Assembly (NCBI RefSeq): GCF_026241335.1
Contig: NZ_JAPHAV010000005.1
Coordinates: 62,001 to 126,000 of the forward strand
Length of the DNA stretch: 64,000 nt
Reading direction: 5' to 3'
Origin: Ochrobactrum chromiisoli
Lineage (GTDB): Bacteria > Pseudomonadota > Alphaproteobacteria > Rhizobiales > Rhizobiaceae
Shown here: piece after piece, positions 10,749 through 32,102 of the stretch
How positions within the stretch are numbered: the stretch's first letter is position 1
Layout: every line of letters starts with the position of its first letter
Notes under the pieces: model-generated
What the model saw: only the letters and a program-made list of their open reading frames with translations
What the model was told of the DNA's origin: nothing
Database searches by the model: none
Position numbers and translations under genes: made by a program

Positions 10749-10764
10749 TTAATATTTTATTAAC
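10749..10764 (+). promoter_or_regulatory. Perfect CtrA-type box upstream of fliC
   Basis: TTAATATTTTATTAAC matches TTAA-N7-TTAAC, the consensus for the cell-cycle regulator CtrA. It lies 132-147 bases before the flagellin ATG in an AT-rich gap after fliP, where a promoter is expected. The match is direct; binding is inference. Confidence 0.65.
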
Positions 10765-10895: not shown

Positions 10896-11741
10896 ATGGC
10901 TAGCATTCTTACAAACTCTTCGGCTTTGACCGCGCTTCAGACTCTTTCTTCGACCAACAAGTCGCTGGAAACAACGCAGAACCGCATTTCGACCGGCCTT
11001 CGCATCGGCGAAGCTTCAGACAACGCTTCTTACTGGTCGATCGCAACCTCGATGAAGTCCGACAACAAGGCCAATTCGGCTGTTCAGGACGCTCTCGGCC
11101 TCGGCGCTGGCAAGGTTGATACTGCTTATTCCGCGATCAACAAGATCAAGGAATCGGTTGACGAAATCAAGACCAAGCTGGTTTCGGCGATGGGTGCGAG
11201 CGCTGAAGACAAGGGCAAAATTGCCACTGAAATCACATCGCTCGTTTCAAACATCAATTCGGCTCTCAGCAACGCCAACTATGCAGGGTCCAACCTGCTC
11301 AATGGTCCTACTGAAGATCTCGACATCGTTGCATCTTACAACCGCACCGGTTCGACCGTGACGATTGACAAGATCACTGTTGCATCGACGGCGACAGACG
11401 CCAAGACGATGGTTGCAGACGTTGTAGCCGCTACTCTGTTCACTGCCGCTTCAACGGATACAGAAATCGAAACGGCTCTGGGCACAGTTGAAACTGCTTT
11501 GTCCGAATTAACCACTGGTGCTGCAACGCTTGGTGCAGCAAAGTCACAGATCGACAGCCAGAAGAGCTTCCTTTCGGGTCTTCAGGATTCGATCGAAAAG
11601 GGCGTTGGTACGCTGGTCGATGCTGACATGAACAAGGAATCGGCTCGTTTGTCAGCTCTCCAGGTTCAGCAGCAGCTCGGCGTTCAGGCCCTGTCGATTG
11701 CCAATTCATCGAACCAAAACATCCTGTCGCTGTTCCGTTAA
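10896..11741 (+). CDS. fliC: Flagellin
   Basis: This is the filament subunit, exported through the flagellar type III system. The start is ATG at 10896 (MASILTNSSALTALQTLSS), with SD-like AGGGG at 10884-10888; the longer open frame upstream is the leader. The N-terminal D0/D1 coiled-coil region (STNKSLETTQNRISTGLRIGEASDNASYWSIA) and the C-terminal region ending QQLGVQALSIANSSNQNILSLFR are both canonical. At 281 residues the central surface domain is short. It is the only flagellin gene in the window, and it is transcribed alone between its own promoter region and a strong terminator. Confidence 0.97.
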   Translation: MASILTNSSALTALQTLSSTNKSLETTQNRISTGLRIGEASDNASYWSIATSMKSDNKANSAVQDALGLGAGKVDTAYSAINKIKESVDEIKTKLVSAMGASAEDKGKIATEITSLVSNINSALSNANYAGSNLLNGPTEDLDIVASYNRTGSTVTIDKITVASTATDAKTMVADVVAATLFTAASTDTEIETALGTVETALSELTTGAATLGAAKSQIDSQKSFLSGLQDSIEKGVGTLVDADMNKESARLSALQVQQQLGVQALSIANSSNQNILSLFR

Positions 11742-18574: not shown

Positions 18575-18773
18575 GAATCGTTAAATATCGTGAGGCGTTA
18601 ACGATTTGTTAACTTTTTTGCACCACTAATCGGGCATCATTGCAATTAAAGCGATTCCTGACGCATTAGGTTAATCTATTGCGGATCCCTATTTATTGGG
18701 GGCAACTATTTGTAATTGTCGCTGAGTCCTCCTGCCAGTTAGGTCTGCCTTAGATGGGGTAACATATTGATTC
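18575..18773 (+). promoter_or_regulatory. ftcR promoter region with CtrA box and four GANTC sites
   Basis: The 336-base gap between the transglycosylase gene and ftcR has no gene. It contains TTAACGATTTGTTAAC (18598-18613), a perfect TTAA-N7-TTAAC CtrA-type box. It also has GANTC (CcrM methylation) sites at 18575-18579, 18653-18657, 18724-18728 and 18769-18773. Both are cell-cycle signals in Alphaproteobacteria. The remainder (18451-18574) shows no clear terminator or other feature. Confidence 0.65.
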
Positions 18774-18786
18774 GGAAGGTGGGCCG

Positions 18787-19470
18787 ATGATCGTAGTCGT
18801 AGATGAGCGCGAACTTGTGACCGAGGGGTACTCCTCCTGGTTCGGCCGAGAGGGCATCACGACGACGGGGTTTCGTCCATGTGATTTCAACGATTGGGTT
18901 GAAACTGTACCACAGCATGACATTATGGCTGTCGAGGCATTCTTGATTGGTGAATGCGCTGGTCAAAGCGGTCTTCCCTCCCTTATTCGTGAACGGTGCA
19001 AAGCCCCGGTGATAGCGGTTAATGATCGCCCATCTCTTGAGCATACGTTAGAACTTTTTCAATCTGGGGTTGATGATGTTGTCCGCAAGCCGGTTCATGT
19101 GCGAGAAATTCTCGCGCGCATCAATGCGATCCGCCGCAGAATAGGCATCGCAGGTTCAAGTGACGACGATGGCACAGAGCTTGGACCAATCAAAGTGTTC
19201 TCTGATGGCCGTGACCCACAGGTCAATGGCATCGATTTTATTTTGCCACGTCGTGAGCGCCGCATTCTGGAATATCTGGTTGCCAATCAAGGCCGTCGTC
19301 TTAACAAGACCCAGATTTTCAACGCAATCTATGGCATTTTCGACAGTGAAGTCGAAGAGAATGTCGTTGAAAGCCATATCAGTAAGCTGCGCAAAAAACT
19401 GCGCGAGAAGCTTGGTTTCGATCCGATCGATTCCAAGCGCTTCTTAGGCTACTGCATCAACATCGAATAA
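18787..19470 (+). CDS. ftcR: Flagellar transcriptional regulator FtcR (OmpR-type, atypical receiver)
   Basis: FtcR is the flagellar master regulator described in Brucella melitensis, related to Rem of Sinorhizobium. The 227-residue product has a receiver-like domain (1-115) and a winged-helix DNA-binding domain (about 130-225: [31 protein letters not shown] ... [19 protein letters not shown]). The acidic pocket (D6, E7) and Lys101 remain, but the position expected to be the phosphorylated Asp is Glu50 ([10 protein letters not shown]) and the usual Thr/Ser is Asn79. Activity is therefore probably independent of phosphorylation. It lies between the two halves of the flagellar island. Confidence 0.9.
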
Positions 19471-31582: not shown

Positions 31583-31594
31583 TCACTGGTCCCT

Positions 31595-31697
31595 AGAGCA
31601 TTTCCTTTTTTGATTTAATCATCGGAAATGCCCTATCTATTTATTTTCACGCATTATCCAACGCAAAACCGCTTCGCACTTTTGCTGGAAATGCTCT
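31595..31697 (+). repeat. Full copy of the 100-base dispersed repeat
   Basis: The element is bounded by AGAGCATTTCC and GGAAATGCTCT. An internal hairpin pairs GCATTTCC (31597-31604) with GGAAATGC (31624-31631). The reverse complement of 45041-45140 matches it closely along its length, and 5562-5622 and 39479-39536 match its halves. It lies 13 bases upstream of the SorC-type start codon. Confidence 0.85.
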
Positions 31698-31887
31698 GGC
31701 AGGTCACATAGGCGTCTGCGAGTTGTTGCAGGAAGCATATCATGTCTCAACTCTTTCCATGAATTGGGGCCATGCTGCAATGACTTTTGATCGTGCGGAA
31801 CACTTAATTTTCAAAGTTTAGCAGCAACATCACACCTGTTGCATGCTGCTCGCATTTTAGAGAACTCACAAGACAATCCCAATATTA

Positions 31888-31928
31888 AGTCAAATAAACT
31901 TGACTATTAACATCATATTAAATAATGG
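31888..31928 (+). promoter_or_regulatory. Candidate promoter/operator upstream of a small membrane ORF
   Basis: AGTCAA (31888-31893) and TTGACT (31900-31905) form an inverted repeat. TTGACT may be a -35 with TAATGG (31923-31928) 17 bases on. TTAACATCATATTAAA (31907-31922) is one base off the CtrA consensus. The rest of 31698-31887 shows no clear feature. Confidence 0.35.
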
Positions 31929-31952
31929 ATGCGCGGCAGGAAAACTTCCCGT

Positions 31953-32090
31953 ATGGCGGGTATAGCGATGTTCATTAAAAATTGTCAGAAAATGCCTTTC
32001 AGTCGCTTCGTGGAAAGTGACATGTTCTGGGTTGCATATGGCGGGGCGTTTGCTTTGATCATCCTGATTGGCAATCTTTGGATGACTTAA
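31953..32090 (+). CDS. Possible 45-residue membrane peptide
   Basis: This short ORF reads as a basic N-terminus with FIKNCQKMPFSRF, then one hydrophobic helix (FWVAYGGAFALIILIGNLWMT). An internal ATG at 31968 behind GGCGGG could be the true start. A promoter-like stretch precedes it. It fits the size and topology of small single-pass membrane proteins. I do not recognise it and coding status is unproven. Confidence 0.4.
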   Translation: MAGIAMFIKNCQKMPFSRFVESDMFWVAYGGAFALIILIGNLWMT

Positions 32091-32102
32091 GACAGGCTCA
32101 AA

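What the first reader, a model, noticed from the sequence alone, without database searches (positions are those of the whole stretch)
18575..18773. Cell-cycle signals stacked on the flagellar master-regulator promoter
The ftcR promoter has a perfect TTAA-N7-TTAAC box (18598-18613) and four GANTC sites in about 200 bases, several-fold more than chance (one per 256 bases) predicts. This points to CtrA and CcrM coupling flagellar synthesis to the cell cycle in Brucellaceae, with FtcR placed below CtrA as flagellar genes are in Caulobacter.
Basis: partly seen in the sequence, partly recalled or inferred. Interest (0 to 1): 0.78.

Follow-up and report, generated by a model that had tools for sequence, protein, structure and literature searches.

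The report
Methylation-marked promoter of flagellar regulator
The switch in front of the flagellar master gene ftcR carries a cell-cycle DNA-methylation site that evolution has kept in one place, inside the likely promoter, in many relatives from Brucella to rhizobia, which suggests that building the flagellum may be tied to DNA replication through methylation as well as, or instead of, through the better known regulator CtrA.

Summary
In detail: TTAACGATTTGTTAAC at 18598-18613; GANTC at 18575, 18653, 18724 and 18769. Judging by its nearest named relatives, the genome is an environmental Brucella (Ochrobactrum). Clustering alone is weak evidence: 14% of random placements give such a cluster somewhere in 64 kb.

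Conservation is the strong evidence. In 27 Brucella/Ochrobactrum upstream regions the box half-sites and all four GANTC sites are almost unchanged while the box spacer varies. Across 143 aligned promoters of the wider sample (14 Bartonella, which lack both sites, left out), one site 63 bases before the start is kept in 124 and one 18 bases before it in 139. The first lies between -35-like and -10-like elements, and its middle base takes all four letters while GA and TC stay: the signature of selection for a CcrM site. The second abuts the ribosome-binding region and is uninterpretable. The CtrA box is patchy outside Brucella. FtcR lacks the phosphorylation site, so its promoter is its likely control point.

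A review names CtrA as a possible regulator of ftcR in Brucella; in S. meliloti CtrA neither binds nor regulates rem. Best reading: a CcrM/GcrA-type promoter with a lineage-specific CtrA input. Methylation, GcrA binding and start site were not tested.

The parts
18787..19470 (+). ftcR (Rem family): OmpR-type regulator with a degenerate receiver, 227 aa
   Evidence: phospho-Asp column is D in 1 of 147 loci
18598..18613 (.). CtrA-type box TTAAC-N6-TTAAC (palindrome GTTAAC-N5-GTTAAC from 18597)
   Evidence: half-site columns take 0,0,0,0,0,0,0,1 changes against 3,9,4,9,5,5,1 in the 7 spacer columns, 27 sequences
18575..18579 (.). GANTC site at -212 (GAATC), within a conserved block TTGTAAWGAATCGT
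   Evidence: 27 of 27 Brucella/Ochrobactrum upstreams; not general in the wider sample
18653..18657 (.). GANTC site at -134 (GATTC)
   Evidence: 27 of 27 Brucella/Ochrobactrum upstreams
18724..18728 (.). GANTC site at -63 (GAGTC), inside the predicted core promoter spacer
   Evidence: 124 of 143 aligned promoters, Bartonella left out; N = T72 G30 A12 C10; column changes 7,5,[25],10,10 against a median of 28
18769..18773 (.). GANTC site at -18 (GATTC), next to the Shine-Dalgarno run
   Evidence: 139 of 143; N is T in all 140 sites seen, neighbouring bases also nearly invariant, so constraint not separable from translation
18716..18721 (+). predicted -35-like element (TTGTCG)
   Evidence: TTG in 86 of 104 and 115 of 143 aligned promoters
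18738..18746 (+). predicted -10-like element (G-N-TA-N4-T)
   Evidence: TA in 99 of 104; in the larger alignment, where the gap falls elsewhere, 102 of 143; without alignment, TA 15-17 nt after the site in 124 of 127
18774..18783 (+). Shine-Dalgarno region
   Evidence: sequence; columns with few changes
10749..10764 (+). second CtrA-type box (TTAATATTTTATTAAC) upstream of the flagellin gene
   Evidence: the ORF from 10896 best matches flagellin models (245 bits, under the 311 cut-off)

Best explanation
The region is the regulated promoter of ftcR. A sigma70-type core promoter (TTG near -71, TA near -47) carries a CcrM methylation site in its spacer, probably read by GcrA or felt directly by RNA polymerase, so that transcription would depend on the methylation state, which changes when the replication fork passes. 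In Brucella/Ochrobactrum a CtrA box about 190 bases upstream of the start codon and two extra GANTC sites would add a second cell-cycle input. Because FtcR is a pseudo-receiver without the phosphorylation site, its amount rather than its phosphorylation should set flagellar gene expression. Shown here: presence, position and conservation of the sites with the pattern of purifying selection; genes for CtrA, GcrA and a CcrM-like enzyme; absence of the phospho-Asp. Inferred: promoter elements, methylation, GcrA reading, cell-cycle timing.
For: The GA.TC columns at -63 are the most conserved XX.XX pattern of 73 outside the ribosome-binding region on the FtcR tree (sum 32, next 43), while N varies to all four bases; site intact in 124 of 143 (94 of 104 in the first alignment). 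Of 127 regions with a GANTC at -66 to -50, 102 also have TTG 7-9 nt before it and TA 15-17 nt after its first base, 22 have the TA only, 3 neither. In Brucella/Ochrobactrum 15 of 16 fixed GANTC columns and 7 of 8 box half-site columns are unchanged. The genome encodes CtrA (NF045991, 420.7 bits, cut-off 350) and a CcrM-like enzyme (NF050803, 633 bits, under its 830 cut-off), GcrA and a RAMA domain in that enzyme. Phospho-Asp kept in 1 of 147 loci. Literature: B. abortus GcrA ChIP-seq peaks are 4.4- and 4.7-fold richer in GANTC on the two chromosomes (PMC6813329, passages); A. tumefaciens CcrM depletion gives motility defects (PMC11514494, abstract and passages); CtrA named at ftcR (PMC12548446, passage).
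Against: No start site, methylation or binding data were available here. Only 12 of 94 intact -63 sites fit the extended Caulobacter GcrA motif YGAKTCK (motif from PMC8725594, passage; count); this window's does not. 19 of 143 aligned promoters lack the site in register, and 14 of 14 Bartonella upstreams lack both sites although 3 of 3 Bartonella genomes tested keep GcrA and the RAMA enzyme. In Ensifer, cell-cycle promoters are not enriched in GANTC and 904 non-cell-cycle transcripts have it (PMC8725594, passage). GcrA/CcrM regulons are rewired between close genera (PMC7987155, passages). The main text of the B. abortus GcrA paper names neither ftcR nor flagella (0 occurrences each), and that of the A. 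tumefaciens CcrM paper gave no hit on the rem gene in the 12 of 13 places shown. A rhizobial review speaks of two rem promoters (PMC8429497, passage), so a single core promoter is too simple for S. meliloti. The GcrA model also hit Sulfolobus among 14 control genomes. The sample is biased: the 80 best of 428, and loci that I chose from the printed best matches.
Confidence: 0.57

Rival explanations
1. CtrA is the main cell-cycle input: CtrA~P binds the box and sets ftcR timing; the GANTC sites are secondary.
For: Box half-sites almost unchanged in 27 Brucella/Ochrobactrum upstreams; a review names CtrA at ftcR and fliC; a box also lies upstream of the flagellin gene in this window.
Against: TTAA-N7-TTAA at -200 to -180 in 26 of 27 Brucella/Ochrobactrum and 16 of 33 Rhizobium-type (28 of 33 have one at -112 to -100), but 0 of 21 Phyllobacterium-like, 3 of 62 Mesorhizobium-type and 0 of 14 Bartonella (3 of 14 Bartonella have one at -243). 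In S. meliloti CtrA neither binds rem nor changes it.
Confidence: 0.3
2. The conserved sites are parts of operators for other regulators (VjbR or VisNR, MucR, the RpoE1 pathway) and resemble GANTC by chance.
For: VisNR activates rem (PMC8429497, PMC4018554, passages); VjbR partly activates ftcR and loss of rpoE1 raises its promoter activity (PMC8781033, passages); MucR is said to target ftcR. The -212 and -134 sites lie in conserved blocks with a fixed N.
Against: At -63 GA and TC are nearly fixed while N and both flanks vary, the pattern expected of GANTC recognition and not of a longer operator.
Confidence: 0.2
3. The -63 and -18 sites are conserved for translation or for a short upstream reading frame, not for methylation.
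For: The -18 site abuts the Shine-Dalgarno run and its columns are nearly invariant. Around -63 one frame reads like a short peptide in some species (by eye).
Against: I see no triplet rhythm in the column changes (by eye), and the 25 against 26 nt spacing between groups breaks any common frame. A real doubt remains for -18.
Confidence: 0.15
4. Chance cluster without function.
For: 14% of random placements give a 4-in-199 cluster somewhere in 64 kb.
Against: Conservation over 143 promoters and in 27 close relatives.
Confidence: 0.03

Closest known systems
GcrA/CcrM-regulated sigma70 promoters of Caulobacter (Haakonsen 2015, not read; Fioravanti 2013, passages)
   Same: GANTC site inside a likely sigma70 core promoter; GcrA and CcrM-like genes present. 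B. abortus and S. meliloti GcrA were put into a Caulobacter gcrA mutant to test this (PMC3667746, passage; outcome not in the passage)
   Different: Target is ftcR/rem, not named as such in the passages I saw; most -63 sites do not fit YGAKTCK; methylation and GcrA binding untested
CtrA-controlled flagellar promoters (Caulobacter, S. meliloti flagellins, Brucella)
   Same: TTAA-N7-TTAA box upstream; CtrA gene present
   Different: Box lies about 190 bases before the start codon, far from the predicted core promoter, and is absent there in several related groups; rem in S. meliloti is not a CtrA target
VisNR-Rem flagellar cascade of rhizobia
   Same: FtcR is the Rem-type regulator and sits among flagellar genes
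   Different: In Brucella the LuxR-type input reported is VjbR
Pseudo-receiver response regulators (PMC12632262, passage, names Rem)
   Same: FtcR/Rem lacks the phospho-Asp
   Different: None found here

Membership tests
GcrA/CcrM-regulated promoter | GANTC site in the core promoter under selection | tested here: met
   124 of 143 in aligned register, N free, GA/TC nearly fixed; that this is the core promoter is itself a prediction
GcrA/CcrM-regulated promoter | CcrM and GcrA encoded in the genome | tested here: met
   (CcrM model matched below its curated cut-off)
GcrA/CcrM-regulated promoter | extended motif YGAKTCK at the promoter site | tested here: not met
   -63 site: 12 of 94 intact sites; this window's TGAGTCC does not fit. 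-18 site: 100 of 104 fit. The motif was defined in Caulobacter
GcrA/CcrM-regulated promoter | site is methylated, GcrA binds, expression depends on both | not testable with these tools
   no methylome or ChIP data held
CtrA-regulated promoter | TTAA-N7-TTAA(C) box conserved among close relatives | tested here: met
   26 of 27 Brucella/Ochrobactrum upstreams
CtrA-regulated promoter | CtrA binding in vivo | not testable with these tools
   named for ftcR in a review table; primary paper not read
CtrA-regulated promoter | box conserved across the family | tested here: not met
   0 of 21 Phyllobacterium-like, 3 of 62 Mesorhizobium-type, 0 of 14 Bartonella at -200 to -180; 16 of 33 Rhizobium-type

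The most novel reading that the evidence does not exclude
In much of the Brucella-Rhizobium family the entry gate to the flagellar cascade is a CcrM methylation switch built into the core promoter of a phosphorylation-independent regulator, so that replication-fork passage times flagellar commitment independently of CtrA; CtrA was added or kept in some lineages, and Bartonella dismantled the switch while keeping GcrA and CcrM.
Probability: 0.35. Interest if true: 0.7.

Novelty: new member of a known kind. Interest (0 to 1): 0.52.

Why it matters
How rhizobia and their relatives tie flagellar synthesis to the cell cycle is unsettled: in S. meliloti most motility genes depend on CtrA only indirectly, and the suspected go-between, rem, was not bound or changed by CtrA. 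A selected methylation site in the likely rem/ftcR core promoter gives a concrete, testable alternative input, and could help explain the motility defect of CcrM-depleted Agrobacterium.

Tried and rejected
Cluster statistics alone: rejected as proof. Strict box pattern as proof: rejected, the reversed control pattern is commoner in the genome. Short upstream peptide: rejected for lack of visible triplet rhythm and because of spacing changes. Loss of CcrM or GcrA as the reason for Bartonella's missing sites: not supported. The first column test used 104 promoters; it was repeated with all 143 non-Bartonella ones of the 160 (14 Bartonella and 3 distant loci left out) with the same result for the -63 site; the -10 column was less clean there because the gap fell elsewhere. 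In one search minus-strand loci were not turned; redone.

Literature on GANTC at ftcR or rem: ten searches showed no title or abstract start reporting it; several listings were cut (for example 15 of 17) and supplements could not be read. Francis 2017, Leonard 2007, Rotter 2006 and Haakonsen 2015 were not read. No B. melitensis or B. abortus locus was among those fetched, so conservation there was not tested here.

Full report
WHAT IS THERE. The window is part of a 4.65 Mb draft genome whose FtcR is 87-88% identical to that of named environmental Brucella (Ochrobactrum) such as B. tritici and B. daejeonensis. The left part of the window holds flagellar genes (by eye from the translations; one scored as flagellin). 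ftcR (18787-19470) follows 336 bases after the previous ORF.

IS IT MORE THAN CHANCE. GANTC is rare in the window (84 found, 278 expected), so four in 199 bases is striking locally. But some 4-in-199 cluster appears in 14% of random placements in 64 kb, and 7 of 159 intergenic regions of at least 100 bp in 464 kb of this genome, the ftcR one included, have four or more. With a mechanical ORF map, the ftcR promoter holds all 4 intergenic GANTC of the window. The strict CtrA pattern has 35 hits in the genome, its reversed control 56. Statistics on one genome are therefore not enough.

SAMPLE. 194 ftcR-type loci came from protein searches: 30, the best 80 of 428, 24 new ones and 60 that I picked for variety of genus from the printed matches. 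In one search, 250 of 297 genomes had a match; weaker matches were not printed, so distant orthologs are under-represented. The loci gave 160 distinct upstream regions. Many are near relatives; the tree-based counts below are meant to allow for that.

CLOSE RELATIVES. In the 27 distinct Brucella/Ochrobactrum regions the sites at -212, -134 and -63 are present in 27 of 27 and the site at -18 in 26 of 27. TTAA-N7-TTAA is present in 26 of 27; the exception, L017/L099 (B. grignonensis), differs by one base in a half-site. Column changes on the FtcR tree: half-sites 0,0,0,0,0,0,0,1; the seven spacer columns 3,9,4,9,5,5,1. That is what a two-half binding site looks like. The whole region is well conserved, though: 40% of the last 250 columns show no change.

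THE WIDER SAMPLE. Of the 160 regions, 127 have a GANTC at -66 to -50 and 140 have one at -22 to -14. By group, first and second site: Brucella/Ochrobactrum 27 and 26 of 27; Phyllobacterium-like 21 and 21 of 21; Rhizobium-type 32 and 33 of 33; Mesorhizobium-type/other 47 and 60 of 62; Bartonella 0 and 0 of 14; three distant loci 0 and 0 of 3. In strict alignment register the Rhizobium-type count is 29 of 33 and the total 124. Of 56 labelled genera outside the window's genus, 44 have a site at -66 to -50 (42 in strict register) and 53 the near-start site. 30 of 33 Rhizobium-type promoters have a further GANTC at -54 to -49.

THE SIGNATURE OF SELECTION. With 143 promoters aligned (14 Bartonella and 3 distant loci left out), the five columns of the -63 site need 7, 5, 25, 10 and 10 changes on the FtcR tree, against a median of 28 for the columns from -100 to -23; its GA.TC sum, 32, is the lowest of 73 placements of that pattern, the next being 43. 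N is T 72, G 30, A 12, C 10 among the 124 intact sites. The stretch from the TTG column to the TA column is 25-26 nt in 104 of 104 promoters of the first alignment, TTG itself being present in 86 and TA in 99. In the larger alignment the gap falls elsewhere and the TA columns read TA in 102 of 143. Checked without alignment, 102 of 127 regions have TTG 7-9 nt before the site and TA 15-17 nt after its first base, 22 the TA only, 3 neither. I read these as -35 and -10 elements of a sigma70 promoter; the consensus behind that reading is recalled, not from a call. The -18 site is even more conserved, but its bases and the adjoining Shine-Dalgarno bases are nearly all fixed, so nothing can be said about methylation there, although 100 of 104 fit YGAKTCK.

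THE CtrA BOX OUTSIDE BRUCELLA. TTAA-N7-TTAA at -200 to -180 occurs in 16 of 33 Rhizobium-type, 3 of 62 Mesorhizobium-type, 0 of 21 Phyllobacterium-like and 0 of 14 Bartonella; 28 of 33 Rhizobium-type have one at -112 to -100. In S. meliloti a CtrA motif in the rem promoter was noted, but CtrA did not bind it and its depletion left rem unchanged (PMC4433202, passage). A review table names CtrA and VjbR as possible counter-silencers of MucR at ftcR, and CtrA at fliC, in Brucella (PMC12548446, passage); the main text of the MucR ChIP-seq paper itself does not name ftcR (0 occurrences, PMC10746212). So a box can be inert in one genus and apparently used in another.

WHY THE PROMOTER MATTERS. In 147 of the 194 loci whose proteins I aligned (some are duplicates), the column of the phosphorylated Asp is D once, E 112 times and otherwise other residues, and one acidic-pocket Asp is Arg in 145. 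Rem is already discussed as an atypical regulator, held back by MirA in Agrobacterium (PMC12632262, passage), and its relative LafR works without phosphorylation (PMC8429497, passage). Activity should therefore follow abundance, unless a partner holds it back.

MACHINERY. The genome has CtrA, GcrA and a CcrM-like enzyme. In 20 chosen genomes GcrA was found in 19 and the RAMA domain in 20, both in 3 of 3 genomes labelled g115, which is Bartonella. So Bartonella's loss of the sites is not explained by loss of the enzymes. The GcrA model also hit one archaeon among the 14 control genomes, so presence by this model alone is not perfectly specific.

JUDGEMENT. Shown: the sites exist and are conserved in the way selection would keep them; the -63 site behaves as a CcrM recognition site inside a likely core promoter; the CtrA box is conserved in Brucella/Ochrobactrum. 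Inferred: methylation-dependent, GcrA-read, replication-timed transcription. The main weaknesses are the poor fit of the -63 site to the extended Caulobacter motif, the lack of a mapped start, the report of two rem promoters, and the known looseness of GANTC as a predictor (PMC8725594).

Noticed in passing
window 10749-10764: A second CtrA-type box, 147 bases upstream of the flagellin ATG at 10896; a review table names CtrA at fliC in Brucella.
   Followed up: partly
window 31907-31921: The only other TTAA-N7-TTAA in the window, in a 520-base gap (31583-32102) between two minus-strand ORFs; target unknown.
   Followed up: no
L053 (and L027), start of ftcR: In Brucella cytisi the first codons of ftcR are out of frame with the rest of the gene; either a real lesion or an assembly error. 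Not mended.
   Followed up: no
G002, G004, G005, G012, G013, G025, G027, G031: 8 of 35 genomes of the genus have only weak hits to FtcR (1e-13 to 1e-19), so probably no ortholog; G005 and G012 are incomplete assemblies. May reflect loss of the flagellar regulator.
   Followed up: no
L048 and L058, about -87 to -72: A near-perfect palindrome TCCCAATAAATTGGGA just upstream of the predicted -35; possible operator for an unknown dimeric regulator.
   Followed up: no
Rhizobium-type loci such as L124 and L140, about -140 to -127: A palindrome-like CTACTATATGTAG, with a GTTAACTTTTCCAC block further upstream; candidate VisNR site, by guess only.
   Followed up: no
L255:12871-13317 (G000 C11): An intergenic region with 6 GANTC sites, the most in the 464 kb sampled; flanking genes not identified.
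   Followed up: no
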